Virus record (IMG/VR): IMGVR_UViG_3300012988_000019
Coordinates: 1 to 54,102 of that record
Strand: one strand, 5' to 3'
DNA: 54,102 nucleotides
From: a virus
The position numbers and the translations under genes were made by a program. Each line of letters starts with the position of its first letter. Position 1 is the stretch's first letter. The notes beneath the pieces are model-generated. The model was not told the origin of the DNA. It saw nothing but the letters and a program-made list of their open reading frames with translations, and did not search any database. Shown in pieces: positions 8,909-42,417 of the stretch.

Positions 8909-8937
8909 ATACTAGGCTACTGCGTACCGGATGTCAA
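8909..8937 (-). promoter_or_regulatory. Promoter, near-leaderless
   Basis: -35 TTGACA (8937-8932), 17-base spacer, -10 TAGTAT (8914-8909), ATG 7 bases on. The -35 box overlaps the true stop of the upstream frameshifted gene. Confidence 0.65.
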
Positions 8938-9432
8938 CGACGAATCGAGTGCCGGAGCGGGAACTTCATCCGGTTCCACACCCGGTTGGTGAGCCGCATC
9001 GCGACCCAGAGCGGAACCACCTTCTTCACCCACTTCCTCTCCTCGCTGAGGAGGTAGTAGGTCTTGCCGGCGTCGTTCGAACGCCTCGCCGCGGCGGCGG
9101 TTCTGCCAGATCATGTCGCCGACCCCGATCCAGTCCGCCGGGTCGGTCGTCAGCGGGTTGAGGTTCTCGAAGTTCAGCAGCCGCTGCAGGGTCTGCAGGC
9201 TGTACGAGGCCGACATGCCCGAGTGCCCCTGCTGGCTGAAGCGGATCACCAGGTCCATGATGTCGTACGCCATCTGGCGGTTCATCTTGTCCGAGCCGGG
9301 GTAGCCCATGCCGCTCAGCTCACGCATGGCGTGCAGCACGAGGTTGCTCTCGAAGCTGGCGTCGTAGTCGGAGTCCCGCCACTGCGGGAACTCAGCGCGG
9401 CGATCACGCAGGGGCTTGTCGCTGGTGATCAT
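8934..9432 (-). CDS. Conserved actinophage-type protein, frameshifted
   Basis: The ATG at 9432 overlaps the lipoprotein stop (TGATG). The first frame reads well to IWQNRRRGEAF (near 9079) and then turns into low-quality sequence ending at 8917. Skipping one base at 9078 opens a frame with natural composition (NDAGKTYYLLSEERKWVKKV, ending HSIRR, stop 8936-8934). The joined product of about 165 residues has the block MAYDIMDLVIRFSQQGHSGM, which I recall from other actinophage proteins of unknown function. Either a real +1 indel, a recoding site or a sequence error. No slippery heptamer was recognised. Confidence 0.6.
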
Positions 9433-9689
9433 CAGTCCTCCAGGTTGGCGCAGTGCTCGTCCCACTCGGGAACGCGCATCACGGCGTTGTAGTCACGGGT
9501 GGTGGTCGCGAAGGCGATGTCGTCGATGCACACCCGGGTGATGTTCGGGTGCTGGTCGACGTTGCCGTAGATCGTGATCTCGTCCGGCTCCTCGAACGGG
9601 ACGTTCTCGACGTCGTACTGCTGCGCGCAGCCCGCGGTCAGGGTGACCAGAGCCGCTGCTGCCAGCACGGCAGCGAGCCTCTTCTTCAT
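9432..9689 (-). CDS. Small lipoprotein
   Basis: 85 residues. A basic start (MKKRLAAVLA), a hydrophobic core and the lipobox LTAGC with Cys21 predict cleavage and lipidation, so the 64-residue mature part would sit on the outer face of the host membrane. It has two further cysteines (RVCIDD, EHCANL) that could pair. Phage-encoded lipoproteins often block DNA entry by superinfecting phages; here that role is inferred from the family habit and from the neighbouring wall-anchored protein. Confidence 0.75.
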   Translation of the reverse strand: MKKRLAAVLAAAALVTLTAGCAQQYDVENVPFEEPDEITIYGNVDQHPNITRVCIDDIAFATTTRDYNAVMRVPEWDEHCANLED

Positions 9690-23556: not shown

Positions 23557-24129
23557 ATGCTCACGATCCATGACCTGCTTCAGGACCCGGTTTACAAGGG
23601 GTTCCTGCGCACCGTGCCAACCCTGCCCGATATCTACGGGCCCGACCGCAAGCCCTGGCGCCTGATGGTGCTGCTGAAGGGGGAGAAGCACTGGCGGTCG
23701 AAGCGGTACGGCACCTACCGCGAGGCGTTCGCGGCTCTGAAGAAGTATCTCCCTCGCGCGGCTGACGCGACGATTAACTGCCCGGCGATCGACTGGCAGC
23801 CGCCGACGAAGGTGGTCAAGGTCAAGGGCAAGTACATCGTCAAGGGCAAGGGCAAGAACGCCAAGAAGGTCCAGGTGACCAAGACCATCACCTGGAAGCC
23901 CAAGATGCCGATGGACGAGTTCGAGGAGCACTACTGGTGCCCCTTCTGCCGGCGGCCCACGGTCTTCCGCACCATGGACTCGCACACCTCGCTGCCCGCT
24001 CGCAAGACCGCGGGTGTGGGCATCGACCCGACGCTCCAGCGCTGCATCATCTGCGGTGCCAGCGAGAACATCGTCAACCTCCGCAACCCCGCCGCTCACC
24101 AGCGGTGGGACGTCTACGCAGTTCGCTAA
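23557..24129 (+). CDS. Zinc-finger protein of actinophage type
   Basis: 190 residues. N-terminal alpha/beta part (KPWRLMVLLKGEKHWRSKRY, a small beta sheet with helix), a Lys-rich hinge (KVKGKYIVKGKGKNAKK), then a four-Cys zinc ribbon: YWCPFCRRPT and RCIICGASE. Probably a nucleic-acid-binding protein. First gene of the plus-strand unit; leaderless. Confidence 0.7.
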   Translation: MLTIHDLLQDPVYKGFLRTVPTLPDIYGPDRKPWRLMVLLKGEKHWRSKRYGTYREAFAALKKYLPRAADATINCPAIDWQPPTKVVKVKGKYIVKGKGKNAKKVQVTKTITWKPKMPMDEFEEHYWCPFCRRPTVFRTMDSHTSLPARKTAGVGIDPTLQRCIICGASENIVNLRNPAAHQRWDVYAVR

Positions 24130-33174: not shown

Positions 33175-35715
33175 TTAGGCACCCTTGTACTCCAGCTTGA
33201 AGTCGTAGACCTGGTCGGGGCTGAGCTCCTTCTTATCGCCCCAGTGCTGCCCGACGGCAACATCGGCGATGATCGGGATGTCGACCACCGTACCGAATTT
33301 CTTGTACACCAGATCCATATCCTCCATCACATCCTTGATGATGGGGAGAGCCTGCGGCAGGTAGTCATCCCGAATCTCGTAGTTGATGGCATCGTGCACC
33401 AACCCGAGGCAGTAACCCATGATGCCCAGCTCGCGGAAGCGTCGGTTAATCTCGATCATCGAGAGTACCGCCATGTCCGAGGCGAAGCCCTGCACCGGAG
33501 AGTTGATCGCCTGGCGCTCGGCTTCAGACTGCACCCCCTTATCGGGCGAGTAGATGTCGGGCAGGTGCCTGACGCGTCCCAGAGGGCTCTGAACTCGCCC
33601 GTACTCGCGCACCAATCGTCGCTGTCGAGCGTGCCAGGGGAGAAGCTTGGGGTAGAGCTGGAAGTATGTCGCCCGAGCGCCCTGTGCCTCGAGCTCGCTG
33701 AACTCGGCCCCGTAGTTCTCGAAGGCGGTCTGGATGAACTTCTTCCACCCCATGCCATAGAGGAAGCCGAAGTTAACTGGCTTGCCCAGCTTCTTGCGCA
33801 CCTCCTTCTCGACCTGAGACTCAGGGATGCCCGCTACTCGAGCAGCAGTGGTAGTGTGAATGTCACCGCCAGTCGCGTAGATGTGCTTCATGTTCGTCTC
33901 GTCGGCAAGGAATGCCGCCACCCGCAGCTCGATCTGCGAGTAGTCGGACTCAACGAATGTCCACCCAGGAGGTGCACCGAACATGCCGCGGATGAAGGCG
34001 TCACGGGGTACCTGCTGCAGGTTGACCCCGCGCAGCTTGCCTCGACTACCGCTGATCTTGTCAGCGTCAGCCTTGCCCGAACTGAGTCGCCCCGTCACCG
34101 TACCCGCCAGCTTGAATGTGGTGTGGATGCGGTGATTCTCGTCGTAGAGCTCGACGTAGGGGTTGAAGAACGCGGTGAGGTGCTTGTTCGCAGTCACCCG
34201 GTCGAGCATGTGCGGTACTACCGGATGCTCATTCTTGAGTGCCATGAGCACGCCTTCCGCCATGCTCGGGTCACCGGGCGAGCCATCCTCCTTGTCCTTG
34301 CCCCGTTCGAGCACCGGCAGTCCGCACCACTCGAACAGCATCCACTTGGCGAAGTTACTCGCGTTGAAGTTTCGCTCGAGCGGGATGCGCTTGTCCCCGG
34401 ACTTGAGGTGTTTGATCGTGGCAGGCCACTCAGGATCACTCGGGTCGGGCAGCTCAGCAGCCTCGGCGATGCGCTCCTCGATCTCAGCGAGCTTCTGCTC
34501 AGCCTGAGGCTTCCGTTCGTTCAGCCGCTTGACATCGATCCAGATGCCCCGGAGCTCAGAGTCAATCAGCTCGCGCTGTGCCGGCATCGTGAGCAGCTTG
34601 AAGATGCGAGCGAGCCGTGGCTGCTCCTTCAGCTCTTCGACCAGCTGCTGCTTCACCCAGTACATGTACCAGGTATCGAGAACGTTGTAGTGCAGCACGT
34701 CATCCAGGTCGTGCTTGAACAGGTCACCGGTGTCGATGCCCCAGGGCTCCACACCCAGGCGAGCCATTGCCTGAGGCTTCAGTCCCTTCTGGATATTCTC
34801 GTTCATCAGCGCGATGGCGAGCATGGTGTCGAAGGTGGGATAGAGCTTCACCCCGTACCAGATCAGCCACTTGCAGTCGAAGCTGGAGTTGTGAGCCACC
34901 ACCTTGCGGATGCCCTCAGTATGCTTACCGATGACCCGCAGCACCTGCTTCCAGCTGCTTCGCCAGGGCGACTGGGGGTGGCAGAGAGGGACCGCGATCA
35001 CGGCTCGCTTGCGCTGACCGAAGGTGTCGGGCTTCAGAATGCAGGTGGCCGCGAGCGAGACCATCTTGGACTCGTCCTTGTAGTACTCGCCGCTGGGTGC
35101 GTGCGTCTCGATGTCGACGTAGATTTCGTCAGTCCTGTCGAGAATCTTGAGCACCAGGGCGAGTGAGGCCTTGTCCCGAGCCACTGTGTACTTCGGATCA
35201 GGAATACCAACCTCGCGGCCCTTCACCTTGTTCACGAAGAGCCTCAGGTCAGCGATGTAGCCTGGCGTCTGACCCGGGTTGCGCTTCACTGCCGAGGGCG
35301 AGATGGTGGCGATGACCTCAGCACCGAAGTCGGTCGTGAAGGTCTTGCCTCGGTACTTGGTGATACCCGACTTGCCCGTCAGCGCGAGCAGTGCCTCATT
35401 ACCGAGCGCGAGGATGTACTTCGGCTTGATACGCCGGATCTCCTCGTCGAAGTAGTCAGCTGCGTGAGTCTTGAGCTGCTTGTTCGTGAGCGAGAGGTCG
35501 AACGACCGGCACTTGATCACCGGAGTGAAGTAGACCGAGCCGACATCCAACCCCAGCTCGGTGAGCTGAGCCTCAAGCGCCTGCTGGTAGGTGCCCGAGT
35601 TCTTCATCTTGCCGACGACCACGATCTTCGCGTCAGCTGGCCCGGTGGAGTAGGTCTCGACGCGGTGGGGGTCATCACAGAGGATGCACTGGTCGAGAAG
35701 CTGTACGACTGTCAT
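33175..35715 (-). CDS. Family A DNA polymerase with N-terminal UDG-like domain
   Basis: 846 residues. Residues 1-170: family 4-type UDG fold (CILCDDPHRVETYSTG, IVVVGKMKNSG, ALGNEALLALTG, TISPSAV). Residues about 190-380: proofreading exonuclease with YVDIETHA, AHNSSFDCKW and YNVLD. Residues about 400-846: polymerase with motif A SDYSQIELR (~590), motif B KLGKPVNFGFLYGMGW, motif C GLVHDAINYE (~773). The UDG motifs are altered (GEAPG to GKMKN, HPS to SPS), so it may bind rather than cut. Replicative polymerase. Leaderless ATG. Confidence 0.9.
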   Translation of the reverse strand: MTVVQLLDQCILCDDPHRVETYSTGPADAKIVVVGKMKNSGTYQQALEAQLTELGLDVGSVYFTPVIKCRSFDLSLTNKQLKTHAADYFDEEIRRIKPKYILALGNEALLALTGKSGITKYRGKTFTTDFGAEVIATISPSAVKRNPGQTPGYIADLRLFVNKVKGREVGIPDPKYTVARDKASLALVLKILDRTDEIYVDIETHAPSGEYYKDESKMVSLAATCILKPDTFGQRKRAVIAVPLCHPQSPWRSSWKQVLRVIGKHTEGIRKVVAHNSSFDCKWLIWYGVKLYPTFDTMLAIALMNENIQKGLKPQAMARLGVEPWGIDTGDLFKHDLDDVLHYNVLDTWYMYWVKQQLVEELKEQPRLARIFKLLTMPAQRELIDSELRGIWIDVKRLNERKPQAEQKLAEIEERIAEAAELPDPSDPEWPATIKHLKSGDKRIPLERNFNASNFAKWMLFEWCGLPVLERGKDKEDGSPGDPSMAEGVLMALKNEHPVVPHMLDRVTANKHLTAFFNPYVELYDENHRIHTTFKLAGTVTGRLSSGKADADKISGSRGKLRGVNLQQVPRDAFIRGMFGAPPGWTFVESDYSQIELRVAAFLADETNMKHIYATGGDIHTTTAARVAGIPESQVEKEVRKKLGKPVNFGFLYGMGWKKFIQTAFENYGAEFSELEAQGARATYFQLYPKLLPWHARQRRLVREYGRVQSPLGRVRHLPDIYSPDKGVQSEAERQAINSPVQGFASDMAVLSMIEINRRFRELGIMGYCLGLVHDAINYEIRDDYLPQALPIIKDVMEDMDLVYKKFGTVVDIPIIADVAVGQHWGDKKELSPDQVYDFKLEYKGA

Positions 35716-35721
35716 ATGGCT

Positions 35722-35750
35722 ATTCTACCTCTCCATCGATGAGAGGTCAA
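35722..35750 (-). promoter_or_regulatory. Leaderless promoter of DNA polymerase
   Basis: -35 TTGACC (35750-35745), 17-base spacer, -10 TAGAAT (35727-35722), six bases, ATG 35715. The TAG of the -10 is also the stop codon of the upstream deaminase gene. Confidence 0.65.
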
Positions 35751-36273
35751 CGACCCGGATTCCAGCAGCAGTGAGCATCCACACCCCACTGGCGATGCGG
35801 TACGGCACCTTGTAGATCACCCGCTTCACCCCGACGTTCAGCAGCGAGCCGGCGCAGGTAGGGCAGGGCATGTGAGTGACATGAACCTCCGAGCCCTCGA
35901 GCGAGATGCCATGGCGAGCCGCGAAGTCGATGCCATTCCGCTCAGCGTGGTTGGCGATGGGGCATCCGTGCAGGACATCTCTCTCCCACCGACGGTCATC
36001 CCCGGCCCGAGTGAAAAACTCTCCTGGCTGGAAGTGGCAACCCTCGGGCCACTCCTGAGCCATCATGTCATCCACCCACTCGGGTCGATCACCATCTCCC
36101 ACGACGTAGTGCTCGCAGTGAGGCTGCCCCTTCGGTGCGCCGTTGTAGCCCGTTGCGAGGATGCGTCCCTCGCGGCTGAAGACCGCACCGACCCTCAGCC
36201 TCGAACACGTACCCCGCTTGGCCGCGACAGTTGCGTGCTCCATCAGCATCTGGTCCCTGCTCAGGCGCTCCAT
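35725..36273 (-). CDS. Deoxycytidylate deaminase-type protein
   Basis: 182 residues from ATG 36273. Zinc ligands and catalytic Glu: HAE at 109-111 (IANHAERNG) and PCPTC with Cys137 and Cys140. CSRLRVGAVFSREGRILATG and TGYNGAPKGQ are the classic dCMP deaminase N-terminus. It converts dCMP to dUMP. An insertion of about 40 residues (60-105) precedes HAE, as in allosteric enzymes. Overlaps the next gene by 13 bases. Confidence 0.9.
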   Translation of the reverse strand: MERLSRDQMLMEHATVAAKRGTCSRLRVGAVFSREGRILATGYNGAPKGQPHCEHYVVGDGDRPEWVDDMMAQEWPEGCHFQPGEFFTRAGDDRRWERDVLHGCPIANHAERNGIDFAARHGISLEGSEVHVTHMPCPTCAGSLLNVGVKRVIYKVPYRIASGVWMLTAAGIRVVDLSSMER

Positions 36274-37124
36274 GCCTTGCCCTCCTCGTCGCGCAGCTTC
36301 ATGGCGGGGACATCCCCAGCGAAGCAGTGCAGCGAGACGATGTGCATGATCAGCTCGCTCACCTCGTACCTCAGCTGGCCCACCTCGTCGTTGAGACGGT
36401 CTCGCACCCACTGGGCCAGGCGACCCGCCATGTAGACATCGTCCTGGAAGTGCCGGATCAGGTCGCAGGAGCGCATGTAGTACGTGATCTGGAGCTTGTC
36501 GCCCCGGATCATGAAGTGGTACCCCAGCGTGCAGGGCACCCGCTCACCGTGAACCGCCCCCGTGTCCTCGGGGAACCAGATCGGGAGAAAGGCCTGGCGA
36601 GTGAGCGGCCCCTTCTTCAGCTGGTTGACGACATCGTCCAGGTCGCCGTAGTAGAACCGGATGCCATGCATGGGGTCCCAGGCCGTCGAGTTCGACTTCG
36701 CCATGTCGACGTAGGCCTCACCCGCCCACTTCGGCCACATCCGCTCGGGGTACGTGTGGGAGAAGGCCTCGCCCTGGCTCTTGTGGGCCTTGTTGGTCTC
36801 GCCGACCTCCGTCTTCTGCGCGAACGGCCACCAGGCCTCGCTCGGCGCGGGGTTCAGCGGCTCACCCCCCACCCGCTCCTTGAAGTGGTCCTCAGCCCAG
36901 GGCAGGTGAGCCCCGGTCTTCATCGCCAGGTGGTGCGCGGTGTGAGGGATCGGCATCACCATGCTCACGTTGGCGAGCTCGTGCGTCGCCAGCATCGGCT
37001 TGTCGCTGATGTCCTGCGACTGCCACTCGCCCGTGGCCACGATCGGGACCTCGAGCAGACGGCGCTGAAGGGTGCGGAAGACCTCTTCGAAGTCGTCGCC
37101 GTCGAATGCGTGAAGCGTCATCAT
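36261..37124 (-). CDS. Thymidylate-synthase-fold protein, predicted dCMP hydroxymethylase
   Basis: 287 residues. It follows ThyA order: GEAFSHTYPERMWP, VVNQLKKGPLTRQAFLPIW, catalytic VPCT with Cys198, LQITYYMRSCD (R218-D221), then DLIRHFQDDVYMAGRL and ELIMHIVSLHCF. In an ungapped alignment from RSCD, ThyA Asn177 (dUMP-reading) is Asp229 here; T4 dCMP hydroxymethylase also has Asp at that place. Predicted: 5-hydroxymethylation or methylation of dCMP with methylene-folate. Product not provable from sequence. GAGGAGAG precedes the ATG. Confidence 0.7.
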   Translation of the reverse strand: MMTLHAFDGDDFEEVFRTLQRRLLEVPIVATGEWQSQDISDKPMLATHELANVSMVMPIPHTAHHLAMKTGAHLPWAEDHFKERVGGEPLNPAPSEAWWPFAQKTEVGETNKAHKSQGEAFSHTYPERMWPKWAGEAYVDMAKSNSTAWDPMHGIRFYYGDLDDVVNQLKKGPLTRQAFLPIWFPEDTGAVHGERVPCTLGYHFMIRGDKLQITYYMRSCDLIRHFQDDVYMAGRLAQWVRDRLNDEVGQLRYEVSELIMHIVSLHCFAGDVPAMKLRDEEGKAWSA

Positions 37125-37180
37125 CTCTCCTCGAGTGCTTGGAAGGCCGTCAGGATCGCCCGTACGCGATCATGCAGTCG

Positions 37181-38215
37181 TCACTCGTCATCGTCGTCGA
37201 AGTCGTCCCCATCGCCTCCCACGAAGGGCTCGCCGTACGCCCGGGTGATGGGCATGCCGATGGGCGAGAAGTCGAGGCTATCAGCCTTGACCGAGGGGAG
37301 CAAACCGTAGAACTTGAAGAACTCCTTCTGCTCTCCCTCCTTCGGGCCCTTCTTGTAGTAGGACCACCCCTCGAACTTCTTGGCGTAGTCCTCGCCCATC
37401 ACCTCGGTGTGGAAGCGTCGCACGATCCGGCGGAACGTGTTGTACGTCATGTCACCGTAGGTGCGACCGGCGCGGTCGTCGCTGATGACCTTGCGCAGCC
37501 ACTTGCGGGACAGCTTGATCGCCGGCGAGCTGAGGATGGCCCTCTTCTCCACACCGGTGAGTGCGCTCGAGTCCTCCATGAGGTACCGGCGGTACTGCTT
37601 GCGCATGTTCTGGTCGTGGTGGTTGAGCATGTAGGCCAGCGACTTGAAGTTGTGCCACTGGATCGCCGAGTTCATCCAGACGAAGCTGATGTCGGAAACA
37701 TCGATCTTCATCTCCTTGGCGAGGTACCGGGCGCACATCCAGGCGACGGTCAGGTCGAGCGCCCCGATGTAGCCCAGGTACGAAGTGCGGGACATGAGCG
37801 TGATCGTCGGCTTCGGCTTCGCCTTGTACGAGATCGAGAGCATGCAGGAGCCCCAGCGACGCGTCTCCTTGTTGGTGTGACCGGTCGCGGCACCACCGCG
37901 CGGCTTCACCACCTTGGTGCGCATGGTCGCGATCCCTCGACCCTTGGTGCCGATCTTGCCCGTGCACTGCCCGATCCAGGCCTCGAGCTCCTCGGGGTCG
38001 ATGTACTGCCGGACCATCATCGACCAGCGCTGCTTGGTGAGCCACATCGACTTGAGGTCGAAGTCCCAGTCCATGGACTCGGCCTCGGCGATGACGTCGT
38101 GGATCTGGACGTCGACCGTGGAGATGACGTCGAGCTCACCCTCCTTGGCGGTGATGAGGCTGTCACAGAGCAGGTCGTGCAGCTCCGTGAGGGTAGGCGC
38201 GGTGTAGGTGCGCAT
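37181..38215 (-). CDS. Second, divergent thymidylate-synthase-fold protein
   Basis: 344 residues. Candidate core: RRWGSCMLSISY (Cys124), TITLMSRTSYLGYIGALDLT (R143 to D154), and ISFVWMNSAIQWHNFKSLAY (W180, H188), matching ThyA PCH, RSCD-N6-LPFN and FVWxxxDxHxY in spacing. As in its neighbour, Asp (154) occupies the Asn177 place; the RSxD acid is Tyr. A unique 110-residue N-terminus and acidic tail (GGDGDDFDDDDE) are added. Could be a partner subunit, a second pyrimidine-modifying enzyme, or non-catalytic. Confidence 0.5.
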   Translation of the reverse strand: MRTYTAPTLTELHDLLCDSLITAKEGELDVISTVDVQIHDVIAEAESMDWDFDLKSMWLTKQRWSMMVRQYIDPEELEAWIGQCTGKIGTKGRGIATMRTKVVKPRGGAATGHTNKETRRWGSCMLSISYKAKPKPTITLMSRTSYLGYIGALDLTVAWMCARYLAKEMKIDVSDISFVWMNSAIQWHNFKSLAYMLNHHDQNMRKQYRRYLMEDSSALTGVEKRAILSSPAIKLSRKWLRKVISDDRAGRTYGDMTYNTFRRIVRRFHTEVMGEDYAKKFEGWSYYKKGPKEGEQKEFFKFYGLLPSVKADSLDFSPIGMPITRAYGEPFVGGDGDDFDDDDE

Positions 38216-38364
38216 CAGTGCATGACTCCAATGAGCTTGAGCAGGGTGATCACCAGGATGGTGGGCACCAGGAGGATGACCGCGATCACGGCCGTGAAGA
38301 AGGCGGCAGTCACCGCAGTCGCAAACCGGTCACGCAGCTTGTCCGGCTTCTGGTCGTTCTGCAT
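38215..38364 (-). CDS. Small membrane protein
   Basis: 49 residues from ATG 38364: a basic start MQNDQKPDKLRDRFATAVTA then one long or two short membrane helices (FFTAVIAVILLVPTILVITL). Lies between nucleotide-metabolism genes with TGATG overlaps on both sides. Function unknown; could tether the pathway enzymes to the membrane (speculative). Confidence 0.6.
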   Translation of the reverse strand: MQNDQKPDKLRDRFATAVTAAFFTAVIAVILLVPTILVITLLKLIGVMH

Positions 38365-38852
38365 CAGTACCGCCCGAAGCAGATGAAGGAGCCGGGGTGC
38401 AGCGGGTCCTCGTGGCACTGGACCGCGTCGTCGTCCAGCGCGCGCCGGCAGTGCGGGCACTTCGTCGAGACGCCGTCGTAGCCCTCCTCCTGCCGCTTGA
38501 TGTTCTTCGTACGCTTCCGGTAGTACTTGACGAAGAGGTCCTCCGGGGTCATGCCCGCGGTCATGCAGAGGTTCATGAAGAAGTGGAAGGCATCCACCAG
38601 CTCGCCCTGCACGGCCTCCTCGTTGAAGTGCTTGGAGGTGGCCCAGGGCTTCCAGCCCATCTCGTCGAGCGCCTCGTGGAGCTCGTCGATCAGCGCGATG
38701 TGCATGTCCTTGTAGAACTGCAGCCGCTGCTCACCGCTCAGCTGGTACGGGTCGGCGCCGAAGTTCTTCTCCTGCATGGAGCGCTGGAGCTCGAACATCG
38801 TGGCGAGGCGGTCATCCACACCCAGCTGGCCGTCGGGGGTGATCTCGGTCAT
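38364..38852 (-). CDS. All-alpha dUTPase/dCTPase-type NTPase with zinc ribbon
   Basis: 162 residues. Dimeric dUTPase/MazG-superfamily motifs: ALIDELHEALDEMGWKPW (54-70), NEEAVQGELVDAFHFFMNL (77-95), and YYRKRTKNIKRQEEGY (110-125). T4 gp56, the dCTPase-dUTPase, belongs to this group. A C-terminal extension KCPHCRRALDDDAVQC plus a last Cys makes an unusual zinc ribbon. It would hydrolyse dUTP and perhaps dCTP to monophosphate, feeding the TS-like enzymes. Confidence 0.75.
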   Translation of the reverse strand: MTEITPDGQLGVDDRLATMFELQRSMQEKNFGADPYQLSGEQRLQFYKDMHIALIDELHEALDEMGWKPWATSKHFNEEAVQGELVDAFHFFMNLCMTAGMTPEDLFVKYYRKRTKNIKRQEEGYDGVSTKCPHCRRALDDDAVQCHEDPLHPGSFICFGRY

Positions 38853-39400
38853 GCGAACTTCCTCTCGATGTGGCGCATCACGCCGTTGAACGTGGCCAGC
38901 GGGTCATCCTCGCGGCCATCCTTGGTGTAGTCGTAGATGAAGACCCGAGCCTGCGTGGCCTCCTCATCGATGGCAGCACGAGCGCAGTACGCCTGGTAGA
39001 TCGCGTCGATCTTGCCCTGGACGACCACATTGTCGGGGTCATCCCAGATGTTCTCCCTGACGACCTGCAGCGGCGGGAGGCAGTAGATGATGATCGGCTG
39101 GCACCGGTAGAAGTCGCCCATCCAGAGCAGCATCTGGATCGGGTCGTCGAAGCCCTGCTCCGCGCTACCTCGCAGGATCGGCCCGTAGATCGTCTCGGAG
39201 ATCAGGCGGTGTCGGTCGAAGAGCATGGGCTTCTCGCCCCAGTGCTCGAGGCTGTCGGCGATCCAGGCCGGCAGGTCGACCATGGCCTCAGCGTCCTTGG
39301 AAACGACCCTCGGCGCGAGCTCGAGGAACGGCCACCGCTCGAGCAGCGACTTGATCAGCGTGGTCTTGCCGGCACCATCCGGCCCCTCGACGATGATCAC
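38849..39400 (-). CDS. P-loop deoxynucleotide monophosphate kinase
   Basis: 183 residues. Walker A GPDGAGKTT at 6-14, DRHRL with conserved DR (about 74) as in thymidylate kinases, and PIIIYCLPPLQVV strand. Fits the dNMP/thymidylate kinase family. By context it may phosphorylate a modified dCMP, like T4 gp1. ATG overlaps preceding stop (38852-38849 region with the NTPase start downstream). Confidence 0.75.
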   Translation of the reverse strand: MIIVEGPDGAGKTTLIKSLLERWPFLELAPRVVSKDAEAMVDLPAWIADSLEHWGEKPMLFDRHRLISETIYGPILRGSAEQGFDDPIQMLLWMGDFYRCQPIIIYCLPPLQVVRENIWDDPDNVVVQGKIDAIYQAYCARAAIDEEATQARVFIYDYTKDGREDDPLATFNGVMRHIERKFA

Positions 39401-39756
39401 AGGACCGGCTCGCTCGGGAAGAGGATCGGGTAGCTCCAGGGCTCCTGACTGGTGATCAGTACCGGGCCCCCATCGATGCGACGGAAGTCGGGCGACTGGA
39501 TCATGTCGTAGGGGCCGATGACCGGGCGAGAGAAGATGGTGCCGTTGGGCCGGGTGTCGGTGACCAGCGTCGGGATGCGCCAGAACTCGGTTGTGTAGTA
39601 CTTGCCCGAGGTCTTGAAGAGGATCACTTCGACCCTCTCGATCGTCGGCGGGTGCTTCTGCTCGCGACCAGCCGACCAGATCTCGCCGCAGCTACACTGC
39701 CAGTACGGTCTGCTCTCTGAACCCATGAGCTTGGCGATGTGCGGCTTGTTCTCCAT
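39397..39756 (-). CDS. Hypothetical protein with CxC
   Basis: 119 residues (MENKPHIAKLMGSESRPYWQ), CSCGEIWSAGREQKH near 21-35 suggesting a metal site, then beta strands (VEVILFKTSGKYYTTEFWRI). First gene of the nucleotide cassette transcript, overlapping the kinase by 4 bases. Not recognised. Confidence 0.6.
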   Translation of the reverse strand: MENKPHIAKLMGSESRPYWQCSCGEIWSAGREQKHPPTIERVEVILFKTSGKYYTTEFWRIPTLVTDTRPNGTIFSRPVIGPYDMIQSPDFRRIDGGPVLITSQEPWSYPILFPSEPVL

Positions 39757-39783: not shown

Positions 39784-39813
39784 ACTCTATCAGTTCGGAA
39801 CTGAAGATGTCAA
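39784..39813 (-). promoter_or_regulatory. Promoter of the nucleotide-metabolism operon
   Basis: -35 TTGACA (39813-39808), 18-base spacer, -10 TAGAGT (39789-39784); short leader with GGAAGGA. The -35 overlaps the last codons of the helicase gene. Confidence 0.65.
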
Positions 39814-41369: not shown

Positions 41370-41399
41370 ATTATCTCACCAGCCGACCGCGAGAGTCAA
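41370..41399 (-). promoter_or_regulatory. Leaderless promoter of helicase
   Basis: -35 TTGACT (41399-41394), 18-base spacer, -10 GATAAT (41375-41370), six bases, ATG 41363. Confidence 0.6.
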
Positions 41400-41832
41400 T
41401 GACTGGATACCAGTACCCTTCCGCTGGTTCCTCGGGCCAATTGAACCGCCCGTACCACTCGGGGTCTTTGCGCAGGAGGTTGGCGCGGTGAACGGAGTGG
41501 AACCGCTTGAGCCCGATGAACGGGGGCAGAAGCACGTTACCCCTGCGGAACTGGCGATCGATCTGGGCCGGGTAGTATAGGTCGCGGGTTTTCTCCCAGC
41601 AGGTGTCCTTGTAGCCTCGGCGCTGCCATTCTTTGCAGATGTACCACTGGTAGGAAAGAAGAGCACCCTCGTAGCCTCGCCACATCTTCGTGACGGGGTG
41701 ATTGACCCAGCCCTCGTCGGTCACGAGAGCCTTCATGATCTGCAGGGTCTCGACTCGCTGCTTACCGAGACGTGCTCTGTCGAGCACCCGAGCCGATGAC
41801 TGGAAGCTCCGGTAAGGGAGGAACGTTTGCAT
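41371..41832 (-). CDS. MSMEG_6728-type / pyrimidine-dimer glycosylase-like protein
   Basis: 153 residues. The family signature MQTFLPYRSFQSSARVLDRA, RLGKQRVETLQIMKAL, and HPVTKMWRGYEGALLSYQWY is clear, as is HRANLLRKDPEWYGRF. Annotated in actinobacteria and their phages as MSMEG_6728 family or pyrimidine dimer DNA glycosylase/endonuclease V; activity is not firmly shown. Its Met overlaps the previous gene's stop. Confidence 0.8.
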   Translation of the reverse strand: MQTFLPYRSFQSSARVLDRARLGKQRVETLQIMKALVTDEGWVNHPVTKMWRGYEGALLSYQWYICKEWQRRGYKDTCWEKTRDLYYPAQIDRQFRRGNVLLPPFIGLKRFHSVHRANLLRKDPEWYGRFNWPEEPAEGYWYPVIDSRGRLVR

Positions 41833-42389: not shown

Positions 42390-42417
42390 ACTCTACCATC
42401 TCCACACCAGGTGTCAA
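42390..42417 (-). promoter_or_regulatory. Leaderless promoter
   Basis: -35 TTGACA (42417-42412), 16-base spacer, -10 TAGAGT (42395-42390), six bases, ATG 42383. Confidence 0.6.

What the first reader, a model, noticed from the sequence alone, without database searches (positions are those of the whole stretch)
35725..39400. Predicted cytosine-modification cassette resembling the T4 hydroxymethyl-dCMP pathway
Seen: dCMP deaminase, two TS-fold proteins with Asp at the ThyA Asn177 place, all-alpha dUTPase/dCTPase-type NTPase and P-loop dNMP kinase, in one operon behind the promoter at 39784. Known: T4 cd, gp42, gp56 and gp1 perform the analogous steps, and gp42 uses Asp179 for dCMP. Inferred: this phage builds 5-substituted dCTP and replaces cytosine. 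No glucosyltransferase or other finisher was seen here.
Basis: partly seen in the sequence, partly recalled or inferred. Interest (0 to 1): 0.88.

Follow-up and report, generated by a model that had tools for sequence, protein, structure and literature searches.

The report
Two-enzyme phage cytosine-modification gene cassette
This virus of bacteria carries a compact, widely shared set of genes that most likely builds an altered form of the DNA letter C before it is put into the viral DNA, and it includes a second enzyme of the thymidylate synthase type that databases still list as unknown.

Summary
On the minus strand, 35725-39756 is a tightly coupled operon: P-loop kinase, T4 gp56-like all-alpha dNTP pyrophosphatase, 49-aa membrane ORF, TS2, TS1, dCMP deaminase, then a UDG-fused DNA polymerase. 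TS1 is a clear thymidylate-synthase-superfamily protein. TS2 (phrog_13667, 'unknown function') has no detectable sequence similarity to TS, but its AlphaFold model (pLDDT 91) matches only TS-superfamily structures among the top PDB hits. Both keep the catalytic Cys, phosphate Arg and Asp at ThyA position 177 without exception (TS1 50/50, TS2 53/53). Phages known to modify C (T4, RB69) have Asp there; hmU phages have Asn. A cytosine-nucleotide pathway is well supported, against the published 'thymine synthesis' reading of these genes in Gordonia phages. 'Hydroxymethyl' is less certain: the closest solved fold for both is a flavin-dependent dCMP hydroxylase (AfhB) that also has Asp177. TS1 keeps the folate-site Asp169 that AfhB lacks, favouring hydroxymethylation; TS2 lacks it. 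The kinase is unrelated to T4 gp1. No conserved glycosyltransferase accompanies the cassette. It recurs in about 100 sequenced phages (Gordonia, Mycobacterium phage Muddy, Streptomyces, Microbacterium, Serratia, Pseudomonas and others).

The parts
39784..39813 (-). promoter-like site TTGACA-18-TAGAGT with TG before the -10, ahead of the operon
   Evidence: consensus scan, 10 of 12 matches; region has 7 sites against 1.8 expected; sequence read
39397..39756 (-). 119-aa protein of unknown function, first gene of the operon, overlaps the kinase start by 4 bases
   Evidence: ORF and spacing; no family; no relative found in other loci
38849..39400 (-). P-loop nucleoside-monophosphate kinase (GPDGAGKTTL), inferred kinase of the modified dCMP
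   Evidence: phrog_761 3e-21; present at the same place in the related loci; no match to T4 gp1, weak P-loop match to RB69 ORF045
38364..38852 (-). all-alpha dCTP/dUTP pyrophosphatase, T4 gp56-like
   Evidence: PF08761 3.7e-15; BLASTP with T4 gp56 28% over 143 aa, E 1e-13; family profile scores T4 gp56 94.7 bits
38215..38364 (-). 49-aa single-pass membrane ORF, start and stop overlap both neighbours (TGATG)
   Evidence: sequence and spacing
37181..38215 (-). TS2: divergent thymidylate-synthase-superfamily protein, C124, R143, D154 at the ThyA C146, R166, N177 places
   Evidence: phrog_13667; AlphaFold pLDDT 91.2; Foldseek top PDB hit 9iqu dCMP hydroxylase E 6.9e-7, all top 50 TS superfamily; invariant residues
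36261..37124 (-). TS1: cytosine-nucleotide hydroxymethylase-like TS homologue, C198, R218, D221, D229, H266
   Evidence: PF00303; PDB profile hits MilA 9.6e-8, AfhB 4.4e-6, L. casei TS N229D 4.7e-6, T4 gp42 8e-5; residue table; AlphaFold pLDDT 83 and Foldseek
35725..36270 (-). dCMP deaminase (start probably ATG 36270)
   Evidence: PF00383 2.3e-21 and phrog_174 1.3e-46
33175..35715 (-). family A DNA polymerase with N-terminal UDG-superfamily domain and 3'-5' exonuclease; inferred to incorporate the modified dCTP
   Evidence: PF00476 9.7e-71, PF03167 1e-10, PF01612; same neighbour in relatives

Best explanation
The operon makes a 5-substituted dCTP that the phage polymerase uses in place of dCTP. 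The gp56-like pyrophosphatase destroys dCTP (and dUTP) and yields dCMP. TS1 adds a one-carbon unit from methylene-tetrahydrofolate at C5 of dCMP through the covalent Cys198 adduct, with Asp229 reading cytosine; the product is most likely 5-hydroxymethyl-dCMP. TS2, a second TS-fold enzyme with the same Cys/Arg/Asp core but without the folate Asp and the 3'-OH His, acts on a cytosine nucleotide in the same pathway: either it works on the TS1 product or it pairs with TS1 as a heterodimer. The kinase phosphorylates the modified monophosphate. The dCMP deaminase diverts part of the dCMP to dUMP for dTTP. Shown here: gene content, synteny, TS fold of both (by prediction), residue identities, gp56 homology. 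Inferred: every enzymatic activity, the nature of the base, its presence in virion DNA.
For: Both TS proteins keep Cys146, Arg166 and Asp177 equivalents without exception (TS1 50/50, TS2 53/53), also between TS2 proteins only 16-19% identical. In known cases Asp177 marks cytosine (T4 gp42, RB69 ORF048) and Asn marks uracil (ThyA, SPO1 gp29, ViI-like TS) in the same alignment (with a local gap at 177 in the ViI-like and SPO1 rows); MetaGPA found the same split, and position 147, in phages with modified DNA (PMC8670742), and TS1 has Thr/Ser at 147 as T4 gp42 has Thr. TS1 keeps Asp169 (D 47, E 3 of 50), which holds the pterin in ThyA and T4 gp42 (PMC6400193) and is Asn in the flavin enzyme. The best PDB profile match of TS1 is MilA, a CMP hydroxymethylase. 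TS1 keeps Ser167 (45/50) and Arg126 (50/50), the deoxyribose pair by PMC5175136. The dNTPase is a T4 gp56 homologue. Some relatives carry a separate canonical thymidylate synthase: ThyA with Asn177 in Triscuit, ThyX in MW202455, full-length ThyA in most large phages that hold TS1. Synteny holds across actinobacterial and proteobacterial phages.
Against: No chemistry has been measured for any phage that carries the cassette, as far as the held library shows. The closest fold for both proteins is a dCMP hydroxylase, not a hydroxymethylase. TS1 departs from folate enzymes at Gly173 (His) and Tyr209 (Phe, as in RB69 ORF048), and the catalytic Glu58 could not be placed with certainty. No glycosyltransferase or other finisher was recognised, so if hmC is made it would be bare, or finished by an unrecognised gene.
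Confidence: 0.62

Rival explanations
1. TS1 (or TS2) is a flavin-dependent dCMP 5-hydroxylase like AfhB of phage HY126 and RB69 ORF048, and the phage base is 5-hydroxycytosine or an ether of it.
For: Foldseek top PDB match of both models is 9iqu/9iqc, dCMP hydroxylase AfhB. The TS1 profile scores RB69 ORF048 29.0 bits and T4 gp42 26.0, so sequence does not separate them. Tyr209 is Phe in both TS1 and ORF048. TS2, like ORF048, lacks the folate Asp169. Mosigvirus 5-hodCMP synthase is a TS homologue (PMC13390438).
Against: TS1 keeps Asp169, which ORF048 has as Asn, and its best PDB profile hit is MilA. The RB69 cluster with arabinose genes is absent; GT2 genes were found only in the ~80-kb genomes related to Zuko among 16 records searched.
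Confidence: 0.2
2. The cassette only boosts dTMP supply: deaminase, dUTPase, thymidylate synthase and thymidylate kinase make thymine nucleotides, as published for Gordonia phage Azira (PMC10353413).
For: Gene names in databases; four of the five genes fit a dTMP route.
Against: Asp instead of Asn at 177 and Thr instead of His at 147 in TS1. NCBIfam thymidylate synthase equivalog cut-offs are missed by far: best 44.6 bits against 174.6. Several relatives carry an additional canonical ThyA or ThyX. The scheme leaves TS2, always present in the cassette, without a role.
Confidence: 0.1
3. TS1 methylates dCMP to 5-methyl-dCMP, giving 5mC throughout the genome, as in Xanthomonas phage Xp12.
For: The single change Asn177Asp turns TS into a dCMP methylase (cited in PMC8670742); L. 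casei N229D is the top phmmer PDB hit of TS1.
Against: TS1 ends 21 residues after His266 and lacks the C-terminal segment of ThyA that closes over the folate; T4 gp42 lacks that segment too. Closest profile match is a hydroxymethylase.
Confidence: 0.1
4. TS2 is not an enzyme of its own but an obligate partner of TS1 (heterodimer) or a regulator. (This concerns the role of TS2 only and can hold together with any of the chemistries above.)
For: TS enzymes are dimers with residues from both chains in each site (phosphate Arg pair from the opposite protomer; PMC6400193); TS2 lies directly before TS1 in the cassette; TS1 lacks an obvious Arg21 and has Gln at 127.
Against: TS2 itself keeps Cys, Arg and Asp invariant over deep divergence, as expected of an active site. 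TS1 occurs without any TS2 in large phages, so TS1 does not need TS2 there.
Confidence: 0.25

Closest known systems
T4 dCMP hydroxymethylase gp42 and the T4 hmC pathway (gp42, gp56, gp1, cd)
   Same: TS fold, catalytic Cys, Thr after it, Asp179, folate Asp171; gp56 homologue and dCMP deaminase present
   Different: two TS-fold proteins instead of one; N-terminal half of TS1 strongly diverged; kinase not related to gp1; no recognised glucosyltransferase; family A instead of family B polymerase, with a UDG domain
MilA, CMP 5-hydroxymethylase of mildiomycin biosynthesis
   Same: best PDB profile match of TS1; same Asp for cytosine, Arg at the place of TS1 Arg224
   Different: MilA prefers CMP through Lys133 and Ala176; TS1 has Arg176 and Ser219, the deoxyribose type; phage DNA context instead of antibiotic synthesis
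AfhB / RB69 ORF048, flavin-dependent dCMP 5-hydroxylase (5-hodCMP synthase)
   Same: closest fold for both TS1 and TS2; Asp177 and catalytic Cys; a small P-loop kinase gene near by in RB69
   Different: has Asn at the folate Asp169 place; single TS protein; accompanied by arabinose-sugar genes, absent here
Gordonia CT-cluster 'thymine synthesis' operon (Azira and relatives)
   Same: the same operon: deaminase, thymidylate synthase, dUTPase, thymidylate kinase in one order
   Different: published reading is dTMP supply and leaves the TS2 gene as hypothetical; the residues point to cytosine

Membership tests
thymidylate synthase superfamily (fold) | TS alpha/beta fold with Cys146 and Arg166 | tested here: met
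   TS1: PF00303, Foldseek E 1.5e-10; TS2: Foldseek E 6.9e-7, only TS superfamily in the top 50; Cys and Arg invariant
thymidylate synthase proper (dUMP methylase) | Asn177 and His147 | tested here: not met
   TS1 D229 50/50 and T/S199; TS2 D154 53/53; NCBIfam equivalog cut-offs missed
T4-type dCMP hydroxymethylase | Cys148 and Asp179 equivalents | tested here: met
   TS1 C198 and D229 invariant, aligned with gp42
T4-type dCMP hydroxymethylase | folate-site Asp171 and catalytic Glu60 | tested here: inconclusive
   Asp171 equivalent D221 kept (47 D, 3 E of 50); Glu60 could be E83 (50/50) or E78 (38/50), alignment ambiguous
T4-type dCMP hydroxymethylase | hydroxymethylation of dCMP in vitro | not testable with these tools
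   needs purified protein
flavin-dependent dCMP hydroxylase (AfhB, RB69 ORF048) | loss of the folate Asp169 (Asn in ORF048) | tested here: not met
   TS1 keeps Asp. TS2 has Tyr there and so shares the loss, with a different residue
flavin-dependent dCMP hydroxylase (AfhB, RB69 ORF048) | FAD use | not testable with these tools
   no co-factor prediction available
T4 hmC pathway | gp56-type dCTPase/dUTPase | tested here: met
   28% identity over 143 aa, E 1e-13
T4 hmC pathway | gp1-type dNMP kinase | tested here: not met
   family profile gives gp1 -1.8 bits; a different P-loop family (phrog_761) occupies the place
T4 hmC pathway | DNA glucosyltransferase | tested here: inconclusive
   none found by Pfam on the larger ORFs beyond one weak AGT match at E 0.008; the window is a 54-kb record that may be incomplete; PF00535 absent from 13 of 16 related records

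The most novel reading that the evidence does not exclude
TS2 is a new catalytic class of the thymidylate synthase superfamily that performs a second step on the cytosine nucleotide made by TS1 (or does so as a TS1-TS2 heterodimer), so that phages from Gordonia to Serratia, including the therapeutic mycobacteriophage Muddy, carry a C5-modified cytosine not yet described, made wholly in the nucleotide pool without a glycosyltransferase.
Probability: 0.35. Interest if true: 0.85.

Novelty: new variant of a known kind. Interest (0 to 1): 0.66.

Why it matters
If true, about 100 sequenced phages whose genes are annotated as making thymine would in fact replace or modify cytosine in their DNA. Among them are Mycobacterium phage Muddy, used as a therapy phage against M. 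abscessus (own knowledge), and the Gordonia CT phages handled in teaching laboratories. It would predict resistance to host restriction, warn that CRISPR or restriction-based engineering may be hampered, and give a function to a protein family with no name (phrog_13667 and its proteobacterial counterpart). These phages are in culture, so one mass-spectrometry run would decide it.

Tried and rejected
Sequence-level link TS2 to TS: profile-profile alignment with TS1 and with ThyA/gp42 gave nothing usable (probability 4.7% and 0.1%), and a PDB profile search with TS2 gave no hit; the fold was needed. The kinase as a T4 gp1 homologue: rejected. A conserved finishing enzyme near the cassette: clustering of ORFs in 52 loci found, besides the cassette, only replication and recombination genes widely in common. 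Glycosyltransferase family 2 in the wider genomes: only in the ~80-kb relatives of Zuko. The weak AGT match of 23557-24129 (E 0.008) belongs to phrog_13148 of unknown function and was not taken as a glucosyltransferase. TS2 in bacterial genomes: only two contigs, a Polynucleobacter and an Acidobacteria MAG, so it is in effect a phage family. A single-sequence search of viral contigs with the Serbin TS2 found nothing. Plasmids: none. Literature on modified DNA in these actinobacteriophages: none found in the held library; the key preprint on 5-hydroxycytosine synthesis (doi 10.1101/2025.06.16.659550) is not held, so overlap with its phage list could not be checked. Heterodimer prediction was not possible (no multimer tool).
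Full report
What is there. The window is a 54,102-base virus record of IMG/VR. On the minus strand, behind a promoter-like site at 39813-39784 (10 of 12 consensus positions, extended -10), lies an operon with overlapping or nearly overlapping genes: a 119-aa unknown protein, a P-loop kinase, an all-alpha dNTP pyrophosphatase, a 49-aa membrane ORF, TS2, TS1 and a dCMP deaminase, followed 9 bases later by a family A DNA polymerase. Intergenic distances are -4, -4, -1, -1, 56, -10 and 9 bases. Family searches give PF00383 for the deaminase, PF00303 for TS1, PF08761 for the pyrophosphatase, phrog_761 for the kinase and phrog_13667 (unknown function) for TS2.

TS1. TS1 is a member of the thymidylate synthase superfamily by sequence (PF00303 7.7e-8). 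A profile of 46 relatives finds MilA (CMP hydroxymethylase, 9.6e-8), AfhB (4.4e-6), L. casei TS N229D with dCMP (4.7e-6) and T4 gp42 (8e-5) in the PDB. Its AlphaFold model (pLDDT 83) has as top Foldseek matches AfhB (1.5e-10), with MilA and T4 dCMP hydroxymethylase among many TS entries. In an alignment with ThyA, T4 gp42, RB69 ORF048, SPO1 gp29 and a ViI-like TS, TS1 keeps Tyr94, Arg126, Cys146, Arg166, Ser167, Asp169 and His207, has Thr at 147 and Asp at 177. Counts over 50 relatives: Cys 50, Arg166 50, Asp177 50, His207 50, Asp169 47 (3 Glu).

TS2. TS2 has no Pfam match above cut-off and no NCBIfam match, no PDB profile match and no profile-profile similarity to TS1 or ThyA. The model is very good (pLDDT 91.2, pTM 0.88) and every one of the first 50 PDB matches is a TS-superfamily protein, AfhB first (E 6.9e-7), then MilA and T4 gp42. 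TM-scores are low (0.3-0.55), so it is a remote member. In the viral structure library the matches include its counterpart in Pseudomonas phage PMBT14 and dCMP hydroxymethylases. Cys124, Arg143 and Asp154 have close to the spacing of ThyA Cys146, Arg166 and Asn177 (19 and 11 residues against 20 and 11) and are invariant in 53 relatives. In an alignment that includes proteobacterial counterparts only 16-19% identical, the invariant positions are Met1, Tyr71, Gly122, Cys124, Arg143, Asp154 and Pro307: the catalytic trio is what selection has kept. TS2 lacks the folate Asp169 (Tyr146 there) and the His207 of the 3'-OH site (Gln186). An iterated profile started from four proteobacterial TS2 proteins recovers the actinobacterial ones, so they form one family.

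Cytosine, not uracil. Asp at 177 switches TS to dCMP (Graves, Hardy, Liu and Santi, cited in PMC8670742), and a study of phages with modified DNA picked positions 177 and 147 as the two that separate modified from unmodified contigs. In my alignment the two phages with known modified C (T4, RB69) have Asp and Thr; SPO1 (hmU) and a ViI-like phage have Asn at both places, with a local gap at 177. Relatives that carry a further canonical thymidylate synthase (Triscuit ThyA with Asn177; ThyX beside TS1/TS2 in MW202455; full-length ThyA in most of the large phages with TS1) show that TS1 is not the dTMP enzyme there. This contradicts the published reading of the same genes in the Gordonia CT cluster as 'thymine synthesis' (PMC10353413).

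Which modification. Asp177 is shared by dCMP hydroxymethylase, CMP hydroxymethylase, the dCMP-methylating TS mutant and the flavin-dependent dCMP hydroxylase. The printed stretches of PDB 9iqc are identical to RB69 ORF048, and a 5-hydroxy-dCMP synthase of this kind supplies the base for arabinosylation in Mosigvirus (PMC13390438). The one discriminating residue I could use is Asp169, which binds the pterin in ThyA and T4 gp42 (PMC6400193): kept in TS1, Asn in ORF048. TS1 also lacks the long C-terminal segment of ThyA, as T4 gp42 does. I therefore favour hydroxymethylation for TS1 (about 0.6) over hydroxylation (0.2) and methylation (0.1). The deoxyribose pair Arg126/Ser167 (PMC5175136) points to dCMP, not CMP.

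Supporting enzymes. The pyrophosphatase is a homologue of T4 gp56 (28% over 143 residues, E 1e-13; 94.7 bits by profile), which fits removal of dCTP. The kinase holds the place of T4 gp1 but is not related to it; it is conserved in the cassette and is inferred to phosphorylate the modified dCMP. The deaminase feeds dUMP and is a side branch.

Distribution. The order helicase, kinase, pyrophosphatase, TS2, TS1, deaminase, polymerase, PD-(D/E)XK nuclease, RecA-like ATPase is found in the IMG/VR loci wherever the contig is long enough (in a few loci the pyrophosphatase was not detected by tblastn) and in named phages Triscuit, Shrew, Amok, Zuko, Muddy, Serbin and Yersinia P744 with small insertions, with variations in MW202455 and Brevundimonas Polewnik. 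In the phage collection 85 records hold the actinobacterial TS2 and 18 the proteobacterial type; 103 hold a TS1 that covers at least 80% of the query. The sums agree, but I did not check the sets record by record. TS1 without TS2 occurs in large phages; TS2 without TS1 was not seen except where the contig ends (L012). That asymmetry suggests TS1 does the basic step and TS2 adds to it.

What is missing. No glycosyltransferase or other finisher is conserved near the cassette, and GT2 genes occur only in the ~80-kb genomes. Either the base stays small, or TS2 is itself the finisher, or finishers vary. No measurement of the DNA of any carrier was found in the held papers.

Verdict. The hydroxymethyl part is likely but open. 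The real novelty is the second TS-superfamily protein, an unnamed family that is part of a two-TS cassette across distantly related phages.

Noticed in passing
33175-35715 (-): The DNA polymerase carries an N-terminal UDG-superfamily domain (PF03167 1e-10, UdgX/family 4-like); an alignable N-terminal region is present in most related polymerases beside the cassette (shorter in Muddy, Amok and Brevundimonas). It could sense or exclude uracil or the modified base.
   Followed up: partly
38215-38364 (-): 49-aa membrane ORF (MQNDQKPDKLRDRFATAVTAAFF...) coupled by TGATG to both the pyrophosphatase and TS2.
   Followed up: partly
8917-9465 (-): Homologue of Tad3, inhibitor of type I Thoeris defence (PF25185 2.5e-28).
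   Followed up: no
41371-41832 (-): Pyrimidine dimer DNA glycosylase (PF03013 2.3e-24), kept at the same place in some relatives.
   Followed up: no
42390-42417 and 39784-39813 (-): Two promoter-like sites with the same hexamers TTGACA and TAGAGT, 16 and 18 bases apart; promoter-like sites are enriched in the region (7 against 1.8 expected).
   Followed up: no
L118:1459-2379, L140:1704-2630, L141:782-1717: In large phages that hold TS1 without TS2, a conserved DUF6734 protein (PF20508) with a DLDAE motif lies about 4 kb upstream; it looks like a GT-A glycosyltransferase (own impression) and could be a finisher there.
   Followed up: partly
L061:2048-4214 (RB69): The RB69 5-hydroxy-dCMP synthase gene lies close to a small P-loop kinase gene (ORF045) that matches the cassette kinase profile weakly (21 bits, P-loop region only).
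   Followed up: partly
23557-24129 (+): Gene with a weak match to T4 alpha-glucosyltransferase (PF11440 E 0.008, below cut-off); belongs to phrog_13148 of unknown function.
   Followed up: partly
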